Shown: positions 30,359 to 48,511 of the stretch, piece after piece | How positions within the stretch are numbered: position 1 is the stretch's first letter | How the letters are laid out: every line of letters begins with the position of its first letter | Assembly: GCF_002706795.1 (NCBI RefSeq) | Contig: NZ_CP017705.1 | Coordinates: 886,001 to 950,000 of the forward strand | Direction: 5' to 3' | DNA from: Brevibacillus laterosporus DSM 25 | GTDB lineage: Bacteria; Bacillota; Bacilli; Brevibacillales; Brevibacillaceae | Length of the DNA: 64,000 bases | Program-made: the position numbers and the translations under genes | Notes under the pieces: model-generated | Told to the model about the DNA's origin: nothing | Seen by the model: the letters and a program-made list of their open reading frames with translations, nothing else | Database searches by the model: none

Positions 30359-30597
30359 AATTCTATACCAGTATCAAAGCGATGAACGTGAGACTGGCTA
30401 CATAACCGTTTCACTGGCATTCTAAAAAAGGAACTAGAGGGGGATTTACTTGATGTCAAGGGTACGTTTTGAGCTGAAATAAGGCTCCGGTCAGAGACAA
30501 GAGGAAGAGGAAAGCAATTCGGTGGTACAGACATTTTGACCCAACCGCTTCGGCGGATGCCGATAAACTACATGTGAAAAAACAGGGAGGATTTAAC

Positions 30598-31200
30598 ATG
30601 CAAACACAGACAGCAGTCGCTCAAAACAGATGGAAAATGCGTGATTTCATTACACTTGCCATTTTCAATGTGGTGATGCTCATTATTATGACGATTTGTC
30701 CGGTCTTTACGGTTGTTTCTTATCTGGTTGTAGGAGGAGCCGCTGCACTGTTTAATGGGCCCATTTATATGGTTATGGCCAATAAAATTAACAAACGTGG
30801 AGTACTGTTTTTTACATGCATCATTACAGGCTTGTATTTTGTAGCCTTCGGTTATGCTTATTACCTGCTTACACTAGCTGTGATCGGAATTATCTGCGAA
30901 TTAATCCTATGGGGAGGCTCTGCCTATAAGAACCCTGTCCGTAATGCCATCGGCTACGCTATTTTTTATGTAGGCTGGTCTCTTTGCGGTGTTGTACCGC
31001 TTATTTTCTTCCGCGAGCAGTATCTGGCCATTTTGAAGAAAAGCTACTCTCCGGAACAGCTTGAAGCGATGCTTTATTATTTTGATACGCCTAGCATGAT
31101 TCTGATCATGTGCACAATCTCTGCTATCGGTGGGTTAGTTGGTTGCTTTATCGGGAATTTGCTAATGAAAAAACATGTGAAAAAGGCAAAGCTGGTATGA
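30598..31200 (+). CDS. MptD-family ECF transporter substrate-binding (S) component
   Basis: 200 residues from the ATG at 30598 with GGGAGG upstream. It has five or six hydrophobic segments and a conserved GPIYMVMANKINKRG segment near residue 60, typical of the MptD/Trep_Strep family of ECF transporter S components. It should provide substrate recognition for the T and A components encoded next. The stop overlaps the T-component start (ATGA). Its location in a Fur-regulated operon divergent from the NRPS genes implies transport of the iron-siderophore complex or of a precursor. Confidence 0.82.
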   Translation: MQTQTAVAQNRWKMRDFITLAIFNVVMLIIMTICPVFTVVSYLVVGGAAALFNGPIYMVMANKINKRGVLFFTCIITGLYFVAFGYAYYLLTLAVIGIICELILWGGSAYKNPVRNAIGYAIFYVGWSLCGVVPLIFFREQYLAILKKSYSPEQLEAMLYYFDTPSMILIMCTISAIGGLVGCFIGNLLMKKHVKKAKLV

Positions 31201-42061: not shown

Positions 42062-42376
42062 TTATTTAGGATAATAAGCAAAGCCCGGATATGTAACAAC
42101 CGGCCACTTCTCCTTGCGTAATGCACTCAATAGTTCAGAATCAACTTGCAAATTATCCTTAACCAGATCACGGGGAGTAAGTGCCATCCATTGATTTAGA
42201 GACATATCGACAAATCGATCGCTTTTAAATATCTCCAAGAACCACAATGTTTGCTCACCGGTATTCTGAATATAATGTCCATACGCAAATGGAACATAGC
42301 CCACATCACCAGCTCTGTAATCAAATGTACGTGCTGCACCGTCTCCCGCAAATACAGTCATTCTTCCTTCACCAGT
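42062..42376 (-). pseudogene. Oxalate decarboxylase, C-terminal fragment
   Basis: From about 42376 the minus strand reads [20 protein letters not shown], then [17 protein letters not shown] and [14 protein letters not shown], which is the end of the second cupin and C-terminus of OxdC/OxdD-type oxalate decarboxylases. Upstream in frame is a TAG about 40 bases away and sequence unrelated to the family. The residues that should precede it (cupin up to EWQYY) are found at 48047-48301 in the same orientation, so the gene was split by the intervening 5.7 kb. Translation could start at the ATG at 42361 but would give only a piece of a cupin. Confidence 0.85.
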
Positions 42377-42525
42377 GACTATTCTTTCGCGAAACTAAAA
42401 CCAAGAACCGCATAAAATGCACTTTTATACCGTTTGGCGCAACGCGTTTTAACATGAAAATCAATATTTAAATGAAAAAACGGTATCAAGAGTGGTATCA
42501 CGTCACTTCAAAATGGTAGAGGGGC

Positions 42526-42759
42526 TTATTCCTTTTTCAACTCCTCTATTTTCTCTATCCTTGAGCATAGTTCGTGCTGCCATCCCGTGTCGTTGGTCAT
42601 ACTGGCGATCAAGGATAAGTTTTTGAGTTTTGCAATCTCCCAAGCTCTTTGAGCGTTTGTACTCAAGCAATGACTCATTTCTGTCATTTCCGAGTCGGTA
42701 AGCTCCCCTGTCTTATTGATAAACCAAAGCTCTGCCATACGTTGGTGAACGATCCACAT
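42526..42759 (-). CDS. Small phage-type protein, DUF7667-like
   Basis: 77 residues from an ATG at 42759, chosen because AAGGAG lies 9 bases upstream; a longer frame to 42786 has no ribosome site. It contains VHQRMAELWFINKTGELTDSE and SLIASMTNDTGWQHELC, a pattern I associate with small proteins of Brevibacillus and Paenibacillus prophages (DUF7667). Function unknown. It lies next to the HTH regulator near the right edge of the inserted segment. Confidence 0.65.
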   Translation of the reverse strand: MWIVHQRMAELWFINKTGELTDSEMTEMSHCLSTNAQRAWEIAKLKNLSLIASMTNDTGWQHELCSRIEKIEELKKE

Positions 42760-42813
42760 CTGCACCAGCTCCTTAATCTTAAACATACGGTATATGCACA
42801 GTTAACTTTGATT

Positions 42814-43056
42814 TTACATGTCCAACTGTGATTTTTTTCTGTCCCAAATTTGTTCAACTGTCCATTGCTTTTGTAATCCCTGTTCAGCAGCTCGTGCATT
42901 CAATACATCTACTATGTCGTAAGCCAACGCTAGATTAGGCATTGACTTATTCCTCGCAAGGCTTGTGATGGTATTTCGGCTAACTCCAAGTATATCAGCC
43001 AACTCCTGCTGCGACATGTCCAACATGATTAGGATCGTTTTTAGATAGCAGATCAT
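42814..43056 (-). CDS. Cro/CI-type helix-turn-helix regulator
   Basis: 80 residues; ATG preceded by GGGGTGA. The helix-turn-helix is MSQQELADILGVSRNTITSLA at residues 14-34, followed by a short helical tail with WTVEQIWDRKKSQ. The length and type fit a phage Cro-like or small XRE regulator. It is in the same direction as the DUF7667 gene downstream and could be transcribed with it. Confidence 0.8.
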   Translation of the reverse strand: MICYLKTILIMLDMSQQELADILGVSRNTITSLARNKSMPNLALAYDIVDVLNARAAEQGLQKQWTVEQIWDRKKSQLDM

Positions 43057-43125
43057 AAAATCACCCCATTCTCACTTCACTATCGGGCTTGTCGAATCCT
43101 TTAGCGAGAGAACAAAGGTTTTGAC

Positions 43126-43153
43126 GAAAAAAAAACTCGCTACGCATAGCAAG
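43126..43153 (-). terminator. Terminator of the 249-residue protein gene
   Basis: A 7-bp stem (43136-43142 / 43147-43153) with a 4-base loop and nine T residues following on the minus strand. Confidence 0.7.
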
Positions 43154-43284
43154 TATTTTACAAGAAAAACATATTCTTCATTCCACTTTCTCTGCTTTCA
43201 GTACCTGTTTACACTGTTGATCATGGTATTATGCAGATTTCACAGAAAGTACCAATAGACATACTCTCTTGGCAACAGTATACA

Positions 43285-44034
43285 TTATAGCTTATCTGCT
43301 AAGTTATATATCCCTTTAAAATCCTCATAGTTTGAAAAGCTGAGGCTCCATTGTTCTACCTTATAGTGAGATTCCTGCGTGGTTGACTTTTTGTTTGTAA
43401 TATCAGAAATATGATAACTGTATTTATATTGCACACCACCAAAGATGTCGCAATCAACGCTGCCGTCTGGATTTGTTACTGCTCCTGAATCGACAATAAA
43501 ATGGAATTGTTCTGTTGAATATCCCTCTTCCGATGTAGTTTTTTCGACTTCATTTGAAATCATTTTTAATAACTGGTCATGATCTATATGGCCAGTTGGT
43601 AGATTTCCTATTACATTTGCTATATCCGAAAATATATTTTGGATAGCATTTTCTGTACTATCTGTAAACGTTTTTTCTTCTACGTTGTAATTAAATATGA
43701 TTTCGTGATGTGCTTGAAGATCCTCTCGTTTAGCAAAGATCCTGTTCATTTGGATAACAAGTGGATCAGTATCATCTACAGTATAATCGTAATCATTAGA
43801 TGAAGATAAAAGATTTCCAATAAAATGTGAGATTTTCTCCGAAGGAAAATTAGAAGCAACTGCCTTCGCGTACTGTTCGATCTTTTGGGGAGTATTCAAT
43901 TCACAGCCAAGCCCAAGCGAAGCCAATGAATCGGATGTTTTTTGATAGTCAACAGCTAAGTTTTTAGGGGGATTAAACGTTTTAAATGAAAACTTTTGTC
44001 CTACAGGGATGTGAACCTTAGGTTTTTGATTCAT
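43285..44034 (-). CDS. Uncharacterised protein in the inserted segment
   Basis: 249 residues from the ATG at 44034 (MNQKPKVHI), with GGAGGTG upstream; the longer frame to 44097 lacks a ribosome site. It is hydrophilic, acidic, without signal peptide, membrane segment or cysteine-rich motif. The middle is predicted to be helical (ENAIQNIFSDIANVIGN), the C-terminus beta-rich (GGVQYKYSYHI). I recognise no family. It has its own terminator and sits between the HTH gene and a proline-rich small gene, so it may be moron-type cargo. Confidence 0.55.
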   Translation of the reverse strand: MNQKPKVHIPVGQKFSFKTFNPPKNLAVDYQKTSDSLASLGLGCELNTPQKIEQYAKAVASNFPSEKISHFIGNLLSSSNDYDYTVDDTDPLVIQMNRIFAKREDLQAHHEIIFNYNVEEKTFTDSTENAIQNIFSDIANVIGNLPTGHIDHDQLLKMISNEVEKTTSEEGYSTEQFHFIVDSGAVTNPDGSVDCDIFGGVQYKYSYHISDITNKKSTTQESHYKVEQWSLSFSNYEDFKGIYNLADKL

Positions 44035-44286
44035 AGAAAACACCTCCAGAAATTTTAACAGCGGTATAAGGCTGAAACTTTGCCTTGCCCCAATCAATAA
44101 TATACCGCAAATAATTACAAAATAATACCCCTTTTAGGAATATTTACATATTCATCTTACTAATTCGAGCTACTTTTAATGATCATCTATAGAAATATTC
44201 AAAACCCTCTGATACTCTGTAGGGCTATTTTAGTATCCATGCCTCACTGGCAGTACCTTCTATGGCTGTAAGATTTCCTTCCAAAT

Positions 44287-44311
44287 AAAAAAGCCGCCTA
44301 AAATCGGCGAC
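44287..44311 (-). terminator. Hairpin with minus-strand T run
   Basis: Stem 44293-44298 / 44306-44311 followed by six T on the minus strand. The remainder of 44098-44600 shows only this and a second hairpin; no gene is apparent. Confidence 0.5.
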
Positions 44312-44496
44312 CTACATAAATTCTTCCTTAAACGTAATTCAACCACGAGAGCTCCAGCGAGTCACGGGCCTATCTGGGAAACCAAACATATCAATTTGCA
44401 TAACATAATAGGATTCGACATAAATATCTCGAATTAAATCTTCTTTGTATATAAAGTTTAAATAACCTATTTTTCATTAATAGTTTAAAAAAGAAA

Positions 44497-44528
44497 AAAT
44501 CGTTTCCTTACATCTCAGGAGACGATTT
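44497..44528 (-). terminator. Terminator of the proline-rich small protein gene
   Basis: A 10- to 11-bp stem with one G-T pair (44498-44507 / 44518-44528) precedes a T-rich run on the minus strand, downstream of the gene ending at 44601. Confidence 0.65.
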
Positions 44529-44600
44529 TCTTCATTTTTATTTCATCCTTGTATTTTTCCTAAACTAATACACACTCTTTTCCCTAACATCACTGAACTG

Positions 44601-44831
44601 TTACCAAGGGGATCCATAACAAAGAAAGAAACATTCGGTCCGATTTCTTCCATAATACATGCAATCTTCTATACATCTTGGGTCATCATAGCCGGGAGTT
44701 AGGGGACGAGGCGGTGGGGTATAAGGTATTATGGGTGGATAATTTGGCCAAGGTACTCGTGGTGGGGGTAAATCAGGTCGAGGTAGCCTTTGAACCGGTA
44801 GTGGTTCATAATCTTGTCTATAAAACCACAA
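44601..44831 (-). CDS. Small proline-rich protein with C-terminal cysteines
   Basis: 76 residues from a TTG at 44831 with a strong AAGGAGG 7 bases upstream. The first 50 residues are dense in Pro and Arg (PLPVQRLPRPDLPPPRVPWP), the last 25 contain four cysteines (RCIEDCMYY, then CFFLC). No signal peptide is visible. Proline-rich plus short Cys-rich tail could suit a spore-coat-like or wall-binding protein, or a peptide precursor, but I recognise no family. Confidence 0.6.
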   Translation of the reverse strand: MWFYRQDYEPLPVQRLPRPDLPPPRVPWPNYPPIIPYTPPPRPLTPGYDDPRCIEDCMYYGRNRTECFFLCYGSPW

Positions 44832-45094
44832 GGTAATTCCTCCTTATCTATATTTAAGTTTTCTCGATAGTATATTTAACTGTATAATTTTTAGGTGATT
44901 GTCTAAATAAAATTGGATAAATACCCGTACTTAATTAAAAACCCTCGTATAAAACTGAGTAAGAGAAGTAACTTAGTTATTTTCTACCCTAACCACATTC
45001 TCAACAGGTATCCACCAAAAATTCTCATCGTTCTTTAGCTTGATCTGTTTAAATTGGGGATCAAACTTATCTACACGCACTCTTAGTTATTTAC

Positions 45095-45301
45095 ATGGAT
45101 AGTGGTTTAATCAAAGAATTTGAAATGACAAATGAAGAAATCAGAAACTTTACCGAATGGTATGAAGATAGAGCTAAAGGAAACGGTAAAGAAGCATACA
45201 TCGTTAATAAAAAATACAACATCGGACCTTTTAATTCTAGAAAAGACTTCATTAGCTACAGTCATATAGAGAGTTTTGAAGTTCAAGAATACAGTAGATA
45301 A
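45095..45301 (+). CDS. Small hydrophilic protein, doubtful
   Basis: 68 residues on the plus strand, against the direction of its neighbours. The composition looks protein-like (EEIRNFTEWYEDRAKG, YNIGPFNSRKDF) and a plus-strand terminator hairpin follows 6 bases after the stop, but no ribosome site precedes the ATG at 45095 or the internal ATG at 45125. It may be a genuine small gene or a remnant. Confidence 0.35.
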   Translation: MDSGLIKEFEMTNEEIRNFTEWYEDRAKGNGKEAYIVNKKYNIGPFNSRKDFISYSHIESFEVQEYSR

Positions 45302-45307
45302 TAAGAT

Positions 45308-45337
45308 ACCCCCTCTTACACTATGTGTGGAGGGGGT
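45308..45337 (+). terminator. Terminator after the small plus-strand gene
   Basis: Perfect 8-bp stem accccctc/gagggggt (45308-45315 / 45330-45337). Confidence 0.55.
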
Positions 45338-45451
45338 TCTCATGTTTTTTAAGGTGATCAGTAAGTTTTTTAAATAGCTAATGTTTGGTTGCAAATTTTC
45401 ATGAAAATAAGCAAAATGGTTGCAAAGATGATTGTCAAGAAAAAGAATGAA

Positions 45452-45474
45452 AACCCTCCCGATTAAGGAGGGTT
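45452..45474. terminator. Hairpin, possible terminator
   Basis: Perfect 8-bp stem aaccctcc/ggagggtt with a 7-base loop; A-rich before and T-rich after. Confidence 0.45.
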
Positions 45475-45552
45475 AAATTTCGTTACAAGGGGATCAAGAA
45501 TTTTACTAGCCATGGAGATTATGCAATGGGTAAAATTACATGTTTATCAACC

Positions 45553-45598
45553 AAAAATAGCCCTCCAACGGTTTAATTTCCGTCAGAGAGCTATTTTT
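45553..45598 (-). terminator. Terminator of the small membrane protein gene
   Basis: 9-bp stem aaaaatagc/gctattttt (45553-45561 / 45590-45598) with an inner acgg/ccgt pairing, just past the stop at 45623. Confidence 0.6.
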
Positions 45599-45622
45599 GT
45601 CGAAGGTTAGTTTGGGCACCCC

Positions 45623-45817
45623 CTATGGGGAGCTGATAATAAACATTGTAACTAATCCCATAGCAATAAACACTGCTACAAGGGAAATAAGAGAGGTTTT
45701 AACAAGTTTCTTCTTCTCAGAAACATCTCCTCTCTTATACTGATATATCGCTCTGATACTAAAAATAACCGTGATAGCTAAAGAAAAAATTAGAATTGTA
45801 TTTGCCAACTGCTGCAT
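45623..45817 (-). CDS. Small membrane protein, candidate immunity partner
   Basis: 64 residues from the ATG at 45817, with GGAGG 8 bases upstream. Two membrane segments (ANTILIFSLAITVIFSI and SLISLVAVFIAMGLVTMFII) flank a basic loop YKRGDVSEKKKLVK. It lies directly downstream of the WWG-motif secreted protein gene in the same direction, separated by a hairpin at 45845-45883. A second WWG-motif gene at 58.8 kb also has a small membrane protein downstream. That pairing suggests a protective (immunity) role; this is inference from position only. Confidence 0.6.
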   Translation of the reverse strand: MQQLANTILIFSLAITVIFSIRAIYQYKRGDVSEKKKLVKTSLISLVAVFIAMGLVTMFIISSP

Positions 45818-45844
45818 ATCTTTATCCTCCACGTATAGAAATTT

Positions 45845-45883
45845 AAAAGTTTCCCCTTTTTATTTTGAAAAGAGGAAACTTTT
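45845..45883 (-). terminator. Hairpin between the secreted WWG protein and its membrane neighbour
   Basis: Ten-bp outer stem aaaagtttcc/ggaaactttt (45845-45854 / 45874-45883) with further A-T pairing inside. It may reduce read-through from the secreted protein gene. Confidence 0.6.
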
Positions 45884-45914
45884 AGAGAAAAAATAGTCAA
45901 ACTAAGAAAACATT

Positions 45915-46583
45915 TTACTGCGGCTCTATGTCAAAAATATATGCCCATGTCATATCTAGCACTACGCCAGTATTATCACTGTTATTAGCATATATACGAG
46001 AAGACAATAACGCCCAATAACTTCCAGCTATTCCAGGTGGAACAGCTGGAGCTACACCCCAAATACCTGCTACAACTGCAACACCTCCGGCTACTGATGC
46101 AGCACCGGCAAAATCAGCCGCAACTTTATTAGCCTCGCAGCTATCCAATTTTCTGCTATAACCCCACCAATAGGTAGTTTTTTCAGTAGTTATGCCATTA
46201 CAATTACCTTTACCTTTGATACTAATAACTGACGAAGGCTTATTTGAATGAATTGCTTTCACATCTAAATTATTATATGCCTTTAAGTCTCCTTCTGCTA
46301 TCTGTGTATTAAGTTGTTGAAGATATTTTTGCTGGCCAATCAGTAATTCCTCTTCGAAACCATCGGCTTTTGCTTTTTCAATATCGAATTCAAAAAAGCC
46401 TTCATTATTCACTAAAACATACTTTTTCAGAGGGAGAATATCCTCTTTTGTAAAATCCCCTTCTGCAGCTACAGACACTGATTTAGTCTGATCTGTGAAA
46501 GCAAAAGCATTTGGTGATGGTGCAATAATCGTGGTAGCAAATAAAGCTAAGAAAGTGAACATCATCAAAATCTTTTTGAACAT
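45915..46583 (-). CDS. Secreted WWG-motif protein, candidate bacteriocin-like toxin
   Basis: 222 residues; AGGAGG before the ATG. A signal peptide ends near residue 28 (MFKKILMMFTFLALFATTII then APSPNAFA). A pro-like region follows, then a Gly-rich boundary (SIKGKGNCNG) and a C-terminal domain of about 90 residues: TTYWWGYSRKLDSCEANKV, a Gly/Ala-rich hydrophobic stretch (GAASVAGGVAVVAGIWGVAP) able to insert in a membrane, and GVVLDMTWAYIFDI at the end. Two cysteines flank the WWG motif. The protein at 58767-59276 aligns by eye over nearly its whole length. I know no named family. Membrane-active toxin is a hypothesis from composition. Confidence 0.6.
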   Translation of the reverse strand: MFKKILMMFTFLALFATTIIAPSPNAFAFTDQTKSVSVAAEGDFTKEDILPLKKYVLVNNEGFFEFDIEKAKADGFEEELLIGQQKYLQQLNTQIAEGDLKAYNNLDVKAIHSNKPSSVISIKGKGNCNGITTEKTTYWWGYSRKLDSCEANKVAADFAGAASVAGGVAVVAGIWGVAPAVPPGIAGSYWALLSSRIYANNSDNTGVVLDMTWAYIFDIEPQ

Positions 46584-46775
46584 TTTTATTCCTCCTACAA
46601 TATGTCAGATAAAGTCTTTTTAATAGATTATCAGAAACATAATGTAAGATATTGTCATAATTTGAAATTTATTATATTTTATTTTCAGATCAAACCACGC
46701 TGATTTTCTTTTCGACCATAAATACTTACTTCTATATATGTAACCTTTTTCCTCTTTATGTATAAGAACCGCCCC

Positions 46776-47459
46776 CTATAAAGGGGGCAATCCTTGTCTA
46801 CTACTTGCCAAATTAAAATAAACCTCATCTATTTCAAAGCCTGTTATTTTACGGCCAAGCTTGTTTGCCGCTTCTACCGTTGGGCCAGATCCTAAAAAGA
46901 AATCCGCTACCGTTTCGCCTTCCTGGCTGCTGTTCAGAATGATATCTTCCATAAGTTTAACCGGCTTTTCAGTAGGGTGAATCATCCTTTGTCCTGCTAC
47001 TTTTGGTATTGGCCAAATGTCTGTTATCCGTCTATTAGGAATACGACGTTCTTTACTTTTCCCTTTAACTGCAAAAACGATAAATTCGTGCTGATAGCGA
47101 TATTGGTATCCCATTCCCATGTGTACTTTGTTCCATATCACACAATTTTTTATAACGAACCCGACACGCTGCATCCACAAATATAAAAGAGGATACATCC
47201 GCCAATCAATAAACACGTAGATATGTCTGCCAGGCTTCAGGACCCTATATGCTTCTCGGAGCCATTGGAAAGTGAACCGCTGATAATTCCTTGGATTAAG
47301 ATGATCGTTAGCAATTATGTTAAATCTATGCTTTTTGGTTTTAGGATTTTTTCTACCAAAAAAACCTAGATTATAAGGTGGATCGGCAATGAGTAGGTCG
47401 ATAGATTCGTCTTGTAGGTGTTGTTTAGCTCCAGCTATGCAATCCATGTTGTAGATCAT
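46776..47459 (-). CDS. Phage-type orphan DNA methyltransferase
   Basis: 227 residues; GGGAG before the ATG. Catalytic motif IV is DPPYNLGF near residue 26, and the SAM-binding motif DFFLGSGPTVEAA lies near residue 190, i.e. the beta class order (catalytic first). MIHPTEKPVKLMEDII before it is typical of N6-adenine or N4-cytosine methyltransferases. No restriction endonuclease is next to it, so it is probably a phage protection or regulatory methylase. The end of the gene contains a GC-rich hairpin (46770-46788) that may act as a terminator. Confidence 0.87.
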   Translation of the reverse strand: MIYNMDCIAGAKQHLQDESIDLLIADPPYNLGFFGRKNPKTKKHRFNIIANDHLNPRNYQRFTFQWLREAYRVLKPGRHIYVFIDWRMYPLLYLWMQRVGFVIKNCVIWNKVHMGMGYQYRYQHEFIVFAVKGKSKERRIPNRRITDIWPIPKVAGQRMIHPTEKPVKLMEDIILNSSQEGETVADFFLGSGPTVEAANKLGRKITGFEIDEVYFNLASSRQGLPPL

Positions 47460-47514
47460 CGTACCAGCTCCCGTTGATGTAGTAAATTATGTGTGTGCGT
47501 AGTAGGGAAAAGAA

Positions 47515-47541
47515 AAAGTGCCAGCTTTTAACCAGCACTTT
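47515..47541 (-). terminator. Terminator of the endolysin fragment
   Basis: 7-bp stem aaagtgc/gcacttt (47515-47521 / 47535-47541) with extra inner pairing, followed by a T-rich run on the minus strand. Confidence 0.6.
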
Positions 47542-47548
47542 CTAAGAA

Positions 47549-48043
47549 CTATTTATTTTGTGCTTCCTGTCCACTAGCAACCCTCAACTCATCTGCCAAT
47601 TGCCCGATCCTAACAGCCTTATCCTTCATATCCATTTGATTGTAAAAAGCCCATTGTCCCTGTAAATGACTAATAATTTCATTTGCTACCTCTGGTTTCA
47701 CCGTTTTTTCCTCCTTGTCATATTTAGCTAAACCGTACTTTTCAATCAATCCAATTAGCTTACCTGGATAACCTGGATCAGTGGCATATCCTCCCTTGTG
47801 GATAGCATGGCAAGCAGTCTTATAATCGACACCTAACACACCATGGTAGCGCGTTGGCTTGTCTCTTGTACCGTTTAAGATTAGTTTAGAATGATCCGCA
47901 ATAGACTCGCTCCAGTTGTTGTAAGCTCTGAAATTAGCTGTAATGGTTGTCCATTTACCGTTGTAATTTTCCTTTGTAGGCATAGCGCAAACGCCTGCTG
48001 GACCTGTTCCTTTGATACCAAAGAGGTTGTTTCCTCGCTTAGT
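47549..48043 (-). pseudogene. Endolysin/glucosaminidase, C-terminal fragment
   Basis: From about residue 88 of a longer chimeric frame (start 48301) the protein reads [15 protein letters not shown], then [41 protein letters not shown] and [14 protein letters not shown]. This is the second half of the glucosaminidase (GH73, FlgJ/LytG-like) domain found in phage endolysins and autolysins. The N-terminal half with the catalytic glutamate is missing; in its place stands oxalate decarboxylase sequence. The fusion comes from the insertion junction, not from a functional two-domain enzyme. A C-terminal helical tail of about 60 residues follows. Confidence 0.8.
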
Positions 48044-48046
48044 AAG

Positions 48047-48301
48047 GTAGTACTGCCACTCGTCATTATTCGGATGCCAATGCAGTTCTCTCATTGCTCC
48101 TGGTTCAACTTCAACTAAGGCGGCAGCAACTGTTTTTGAAGCCAGAAAATTAGATGAGTCCACAATTCTAACACTTCCCCCAGGTGTTCTAATTGGTTTT
48201 TGAGCTAATAACCGATACGTAAAGCTTTCGGGAACGATCCCATAGGGAGAGTGGACTTGACAAGAAAAGAGACTTTTTTCATCAAATAATGTATGCCACA
48301 A
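48047..48301 (-). pseudogene. Oxalate decarboxylase, internal fragment
   Basis: The minus strand encodes [40 protein letters not shown], and [20 protein letters not shown]: the linker and the metal-binding HxH of the second cupin of OxdC/OxdD. The first cupin (roughly 200 residues) is missing upstream; only about 330 bases separate this piece from the divergent phenylalanine hydroxylase gene. The 3' continuation lies at 42062-42376. The nominal start is a TTG without a properly spaced ribosome site, so this is a remnant. Confidence 0.85.
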
Positions 48302-48511
48302 TTCCCTTCATTATTACTTTCCGTCATTAAAAACTTGATTATCATTTCCCGCAATAAGATACATTCCCATGCTACGGTTTATTCTAAAGTTTATCCCTTT
48401 TACAAACTGATACATTTATAAATCAACAAATTAACTCAATTGCATGAATATTTCCAGCCGTATTGACGATCTTATTTTCCCGACATATACTTATCCATAT
48501 ACTTTATCACT

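What the first reader, a model, noticed from the sequence alone, without database searches (positions are those of the whole stretch)
42062..48301. Oxalate decarboxylase gene split by a 5.7-kb prophage-derived segment
Two consecutive halves of one second-cupin coding sequence flank the segment in the correct order and orientation, meeting at the codon after EWQYY with a shared ACT. OxdD-type decarboxylases are spore-coat proteins in B. subtilis, and insertions in sporulation genes that excise in the mother cell (skin, SP-beta in spsM) are known. Here the 5' cupin and any recombinase are missing, so this looks like a fossil of such an event.
Basis: partly seen in the sequence, partly recalled or inferred. 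Interest (0 to 1): 0.75.

Follow-up and report, generated by a model that had tools for sequence, protein, structure and literature searches.

The report
Dead oxalate decarboxylase gene, prophage remnant inside
A probable spore-linked enzyme gene in a Brevibacillus laterosporus-type bacterium has been broken by leftover phage DNA and by a separate loss of its first half; it looks like an ordinary decayed gene, not a working genetic switch.

Summary
On the minus strand, two consecutive parts of one bicupin oxalate decarboxylase gene (TIGR03404) flank 5,664 bp of phage DNA (42377-48040) and abut exactly, with ACT at both junctions. Two of the four other genus genomes carry an intact gene at the same locus. 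The segment runs from codon 44 of an endolysin gene to just past a DUF7667 gene, matching the right-hand part of B. laterosporus phages. In two other remnants of this chromosome with clear att repeats, DUF7667 is the last gene before the right repeat (gaps 163 and 173 bp; here 149 bp). Most likely this is a former prophage inside the gene that lost its left part.

The excision reading is not supported. No recombinase was found, the direct repeat is 3 bp, the left end lies inside a lysin gene, and a separate deletion removed the start codon and about 226 codons. None of 19 near-full-length family alleles has an insertion at this codon. A sigma-E-like promoter (also in both intact relatives) does support a sporulation link. 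Single-step capture of a phage fragment remains a serious rival. The locus is an ordinary pseudogene with a prophage remnant.

The parts
42062..42376 (-). 3' piece of the oxalate decarboxylase gene (rest of second cupin to stop)
   Evidence: TIGR03404 positions 279-367 of 367; continuous with the 5' piece in G003/G004
48041..48256 (-). 5' piece of the second cupin (to EWQYYL plus ACT)
   Evidence: TIGR03404 202-276; 6 amino-acid differences in 71 from G003 and 5 from G004
42377..48040 (-). Phage-derived insert, 5,664 bp, GC 0.368
47549..48043 (-). Endolysin C-terminal part (residues 44-207 of 207), fused in frame to the cupin 5' piece
   Evidence: 91.5% identical to the Jimmer1 endolysin (aligned from residue 43, which is the shared Leu); PF01832 and phrog_3513
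46776..47459 (-). Phage DNA methyltransferase, open ORF
   Evidence: PF01555 1.5e-44, phrog_67 2.2e-70; Emery and IMG/VR homologues
45915..46583 (-). Secreted-type phage-borne protein (signal peptide read by eye)
   Evidence: weak phrog_30375; homologue in G004 contig 42, 86%
45095..45301 (+). C-terminal stub of a phage kelch-repeat protein
   Evidence: Near-identical by eye to the C-terminus of the 406-aa ORF 6638-7858 of L254; the DNA matches the 3' end of the Jimmer1 galactose oxidase/kelch gene
43285..44097 (-). 270-aa ORF of unknown family
   Evidence: best matches E 0.043 (Pfam) and 0.057 (PHROGs)
42814..43056 (-). XRE/Cro-type regulator
   Evidence: PF01381 8.5e-11
42526..42786 (-). DUF7667 gene, last gene before the right att repeat in L253 and L254
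   Evidence: PF24704 8e-33; positions in L253 and L254
42374..42376 (-). Right junction, ACT copy (candidate attR start)
48041..48043 (-). Left junction, ACT copy shared by oxd and lysin
48257..48270 (-). Scar of a separate deletion that removed the start codon and about 226 codons of oxd
   Evidence: L009 8017-8726 has no counterpart in the window; codon count
48288..48316 (-). Sigma-E-like promoter, TAATAAT-N14-CATACATT
   Evidence: 14 of 15 consensus positions, 0 of 200 shuffles as good; same score in G003 and G004; consensus recalled

Best explanation
A temperate phage of the B. laterosporus type once integrated inside the second cupin of a sporulation-linked oxalate decarboxylase gene. 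The prophage then lost everything from its left end to codon 44 of the endolysin (integrase, replication, head and tail genes), and a separate deletion removed the start codon and first cupin of the host gene. What remains is a dead gene holding the right-hand 5.7 kb of a prophage. Shown: split gene, intact alleles at the same locus, phage origin, no recombinase found, missing first cupin. Inferred: that a whole prophage once stood here, that the right junction is a true attR, the sporulation role, and the order of events.
For: Intact 404-aa open frames at the same locus in G003 and G004. The insert shares gene content and order with the lysin-to-integrase interval of Brevibacillus phages. In two other remnants of this chromosome with clear direct repeats (L253, 48 bp, one copy at a tRNA-Val gene; L254, 17 bp) DUF7667 is the last gene before the right repeat, gaps 163 and 173 bp; here 149 bp. 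In Emery the matching stretch ends at 30414, and the junction extrapolates to about 30572, before the integrase stop at 30675. Both comparison remnants (about 10.8 and 9.8 kb between repeats) are far shorter than the 45-59 kb Brevibacillus phage records, yet keep the right end. The 3' piece has low dN (0.047 and 0.038) against dS 0.41 and 0.53 to G003 and G004, so the disruption is recent compared with that divergence.
Against: The left deletion would have to stop exactly at the oxd/phage boundary; no mechanism for that is shown. The direct repeat is only 3 bp, whereas the integrases of L253, L254 and Emery are tyrosine type, with 48- and 17-bp repeats in L253 and L254. In L070, L071 and L132 phage-like DNA continues about 200 bp past the position of this junction. 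No complete prophage in this gene was found. The lysin site is no clear att-like site: in L011 rank 28 (48 ties) and 33 (24 ties) of 633 ACT sites at 10- and 15-bp flanks; in L163 rank 6 (13 ties) and 8 (18 ties) of 244.
Confidence: 0.58

Rival explanations
1. A linear fragment of phage DNA was captured in one step at a break in the oxd gene (end joining with 3-bp microhomology), without site-specific recombination. No prophage ever stood here.
For: Both oxd sides are complete to the base; ACT is native to the lysin in several phages and present at the site, so microhomology suffices; no repeat of 8 bp or more across the junctions; left end inside a gene; no integrase found; in L070, L071 and L132 the phage continues past the right junction.
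Against: The right end falls in the short interval between the last phage gene and the integrase/att region, which a random break would hit rarely (my estimate, about 1% for a 50-kb phage).
Confidence: 0.34
2. The element is a gene-intervening element like skin or SP-beta in spsM that is, or until recently was, excised in the mother cell.
For: Sigma-E-like promoter upstream of the gene in the window, G003 and G004; B. subtilis OxdD is a spore-coat protein (PMC5812249, passages).
Against: No recombinase found; 3-bp repeat only; the rest of the gene lacks start and first cupin; no insertion at this codon in 19 near-full-length alleles.
Confidence: 0.05
3. The two pieces come from different genes or from an assembly error.
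For: Only one genome shows the split; reads cannot be inspected.
Against: Both pieces match consecutive parts of one allele at the same locus; the genome is one contig, 100% complete by the tool's figure.
Confidence: 0.03

Closest known systems
Degenerate prophage remnants of the same chromosome (957.5-968.3 kb, L253; 2666.1-2675.9 kb, L254)
   Same: Right-hand phage end with DUF7667 as last gene; much shorter than the phages
   Different: L253 keeps an open integrase ORF and L254 integrase pieces, with repeats of 48 and 17 bp; here no integrase was found and the repeat is 3 bp
SP-beta in spsM, skin in sigK, gin in gerE (sporulation gene-intervening elements)
   Same: Foreign DNA splits a probable sporulation gene with both parts in the correct order and orientation
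   Different: Those carry a recombinase and the joined gene is whole; SP-beta has a 16-bp core (passages of PMC4191935), gin 9 bp and three serine recombinases (PMC5595907 part 1 of 6). Tested here, none of these features was met.
Brevibacillus phages Jimmer1, Abouo, Emery
   Same: Endolysin or methyltransferase and accessory genes between lysis genes and integrase
   Different: Complete phage records with integrase and virion genes; no record covers more than 18% of the insert

Membership tests
Sporulation gene-intervening element (skin / SP-beta-spsM / gin) | Carries a site-specific recombinase | tested here: not met
   No recombinase family above chance among the ten proteins scanned and no tblastn hit of four phage integrases in the window
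Sporulation gene-intervening element (skin / SP-beta-spsM / gin) | Direct repeats / att sites at both ends | tested here: not met
   Only ACT (3 bp); no direct repeat of 8 bp or more between the two 300-bp junction regions
Sporulation gene-intervening element (skin / SP-beta-spsM / gin) | Joining the flanks gives a complete gene | tested here: not met
   Start codon and about 226 codons deleted upstream
Sporulation gene-intervening element (skin / SP-beta-spsM / gin) | Interrupted gene is a sporulation gene | tested here: inconclusive
   Sigma-E-like promoter in window, G003, G004 (consensus recalled); best sites of 17 other family alleles score only 10-12 of 15; no expression data
Sporulation gene-intervening element (skin / SP-beta-spsM / gin) | Excision in the mother cell during sporulation | not testable with these tools
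   needs cells
Prophage remnant | Several phage genes in phage order | tested here: met
   Lysin, methyltransferase, DUF7667 in the order of L254 and L130; lysin and methyltransferase as in L163
Prophage remnant | Ends at attachment sites | tested here: inconclusive
   Right end fits the position seen in L253 and L254 but lies about 200 bp short of host-like sequence in L070; left end lies inside the lysin gene
Bicupin oxalate decarboxylase (TIGR03404) | Full-length two-cupin match above the curated cut-off | tested here: met
   Met by the intact G003 allele, 591 bits against cut-off 254; the window pieces score 102 and 126 bits, each below it

The most novel reading that the evidence does not exclude
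The codon after EWQYYL in oxd was an attachment site of a B. laterosporus phage whose excision once rebuilt a sigma-E-driven spore enzyme gene: an oxd counterpart of the spsM/SP-beta switch, here seen as a fossil.
Probability: 0.07. Interest if true: 0.5.

Novelty: new member of a known kind. Interest (0 to 1): 0.2.

Why it matters
It shows how a prophage-split, probably sporulation-linked gene can end as a pseudogene, and warns against reading split spore genes as switches without a recombinase, att repeats and a whole gene on joining. The gene also looks prone to loss in this family: partial or disrupted in 4 of 39 genomes, and no match at E 1e-20 in 16 of 39.

Tried and rejected
Looked for a complete prophage in oxd: in the viral-contig scan with the 3' piece 7 stretches matched a pattern and none encodes a relative; the scan with the fusion ORF gave 10 loci, seven of them phage lysins (L163-L168, L172; not all opened) and three oxalate decarboxylase genes of other bacteria on phage-classed contigs (L169-L171). 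Such scans use short peptide patterns and find close relatives only.

Looked for the right-end sequence elsewhere: pattern AGTTTCGCGAAWGAAT occurs once in G000 and in none of four other genus genomes; in viral contigs 22 stretches, of which two (L109, L123, the records of L071 and L070) were recognised; the other 20 were not examined. Plasmids: 1 of 72,556 records matches, over 5% of the insert. The idea that L070 and L071 end exactly where the insert ends was withdrawn, because host-like sequence starts only about 200 bp later. A serine integrase: PF07508 matched in 0 of 5 virus records tested, which may be fragments.

Idea that the lysin holds a secondary att site: not supported. The first attempt, used a wrong right flank and is discarded. 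In one search the label 'lacks ACT' printed for five loci comes from my strict anchor; L165 and L167 do have ACT there, so only L011 and L163 were ranked.

The dN of the 5' piece (0.18) is inflated because the stretch compared reached into the deletion scar; one search recounts 6 and 5 differences in 71. The sigma-E consensus is recalled; the passages seen did not print it. In one search, 3 of 17 other alleles (L016, L019, L020) had best sites reached by 4 or fewer of 100 shuffles, the other 14 by 13 or more. The 39 family genomes are one per species, so strain variation was not seen. For G013 and G026, one search reports one TAA inside the match; not followed up.

Papers: PMC5595907 part 1 of 6; passages of PMC4191935, PMC5812249 and PMC517825; all others only search listings. 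No title or abstract start listed reports a phage in oxdD; the lists were capped at 15, 10, 8 and 8 rows.

Full report
Setting. The window is 886001-950000 of a single-contig 5.40-Mb chromosome. A genome of the same genus, G004, has a contig 4 of 140,981 bp, and a record of the same length titled Brevibacillus laterosporus MSSRFCCT15 was returned as L173. Twelve of the 14 phage records matched are B. laterosporus phages (several are GenBank/RefSeq copies of one phage). I therefore call it B. laterosporus-type.

Observation. On the minus strand the 5' piece ends ...EWQYYL plus ACT at 48041, and the 3' piece starts ACT GGT GAA at 42376 and ends at 42062. Pfam, TIGR03404 and the comparison with relatives agree that these are consecutive parts of one bicupin oxalate decarboxylase. 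The intact gene sits at the same place in G003 and G004: the 16-kb stretches L009 and L010 match the window on both sides of the gene (about 84-92% in blocks of 300 bp or more), with the segment absent. The other two genus genomes, G001 and G002, show no match.

What the segment is. It is 5,664 bp, 42377-48040. Reading along the gene it holds: an endolysin from residue 44 to 207, fused in frame to the cupin; a DNA methyltransferase; a secreted-type protein; small ORFs, including, on the other strand, a stub of a kelch-repeat protein; a 270-aa protein; an XRE regulator; and DUF7667. In the phage collection 14 of 50,697 records match, 12 Brevibacillus and 2 Paenibacillus, none covering more than 18%. 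Integrated relatives in the genus and in IMG/VR share blocks, mostly at about 80-93%. No integrase or recombinase was found in it (a Phage_int_M match at E 0.043 in the 270-aa ORF is at chance level).

Right end. In two remnants of the same chromosome with clear direct repeats, L253 (48 bp, one copy at a tRNA-Val gene) and L254 (17 bp), the DUF7667 gene is the last one before the right repeat, at 163 and 173 bp. Here the distance from the DUF7667 stop to the junction is 149 bp. In phage Emery the matching stretch ends at 30414, and the junction extrapolates to about 30572, just before the integrase stop at 30675. That fits a true prophage end. Against it, L070, L071 and L132 share a further stretch beyond this point, and host-like sequence, as judged by matches in G000, G003 and G004, begins only about 200 bp later. 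For that phage type the junction would lie short of attR.

Left end. The lysin in related phages reads GGACTAACTAAG or close variants; the window reads TACCTTACTAAG. The boundary is exact, with ACT common to oxd and lysin. No direct repeat of 8 bp or more links the two junction regions. If a prophage stood here, a deletion from its left end to lysin codon 44 must have stopped at the boundary. I tested whether the lysin site resembles the oxd site more than other ACT sites of the same locus do. In L011 it has 11 of 23 matches, rank 28 with 48 ties of 633, at 10-bp flanks, and 14 of 33, rank 33 with 24 ties, at 15 bp. In L163 it has rank 6 with 13 ties and rank 8 with 18 ties of 244. It is above the middle but not outstanding. 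At 6-bp flanks it is in the middle, and at 20 bp rank 70 of 633 and 22 of 244. The left junction is therefore unexplained under the prophage model and natural under fragment capture, while the right junction is natural under the prophage model and a coincidence under capture. I give 0.58 and 0.34.

State of the gene. Between 48257 and 48270 a second, separate event removed about 710 bp: the start codon and about 226 codons. Joining the flanks could not give an enzyme. The remaining pieces are still conserved (6 and 5 differences in 71 residues from G003 and G004; 3' piece dN 0.047 and 0.038, dS 0.41 and 0.53), so the damage is recent compared with the split from the relatives.

Sporulation link. 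Upstream of the gene, G003, G004 and the window carry a sigma-E-like promoter scoring 14 of 15 (TCATAAT or TAATAAT, N14, CATACATT). No shuffle reached it: 0 of 100, 0 of 100 and 0 of 200. In 17 other family alleles the best sites reached 10 to 12; for 14 of these, 13 or more of 100 shuffles did as well. The consensus is recalled. OxdD is a spore-coat protein in B. subtilis and the parasporal crystal protein of B. pumilus 15.1, where a sigma-K promoter was predicted (passages of PMC5812249).

Comparison with gene-intervening elements. SP-beta in spsM has a 16-bp core (passages of PMC4191935), and gin in gerE has 9 bp and three serine recombinases (PMC5595907 part 1 of 6). The defining features tested here (recombinase, att repeats, whole gene on joining) are not met. 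Of 39 family genomes, 19 have a near-full-length gene in one piece, four (G000, G005, G029, G034) have partial genes, and 16 have no match at E 1e-20; the sequence around this codon is continuous in all 19. In two of the 19, G013 and G026, the search reports one TAA inside the match, not followed up. I found no sign that other elements use the site.

Verdict. A real but ordinary feature: a pseudogene interrupted by a prophage remnant. Interest 0.2.

Noticed in passing
G005 C1:1254286-1254882 and G034 C1:203567-204288 (L035, L038, L033, L037): Two other family genomes carry oxd genes with the middle missing; in G005 the first cupin is joined in frame just before EWQYY of the second, giving a 227-aa frame, as if the two cupin repeats had recombined.
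   Followed up: partly
L254 (G000 C1:2666.1-2675.9 kb): Prophage remnant with the same right-hand gene order as the insert (lysin end, methyltransferase, start of the secreted protein, DUF7667), integrase fragments, what reads by eye as an IS3-like element between integrase and lysin pieces, and a 508-aa ORF that reads by eye as a serine recombinase just outside its right repeat.
   Followed up: partly
L253 (G000 C1:957.5-968.3 kb): A 10.8-kb prophage remnant between 48-bp repeats, one at a tRNA-Val gene, 7.5 kb beyond the window, with a 379-aa open tyrosine-integrase ORF.
   Followed up: partly
window 7345-36859: Large gene cluster with two giant multi-domain synthetases, a synthetase fused to what looks like a salicylate-type synthase, a thioesterase, and ABC/ECF transporter genes; reads by eye like a siderophore cluster of the pyochelin/yersiniabactin kind.
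   Followed up: no
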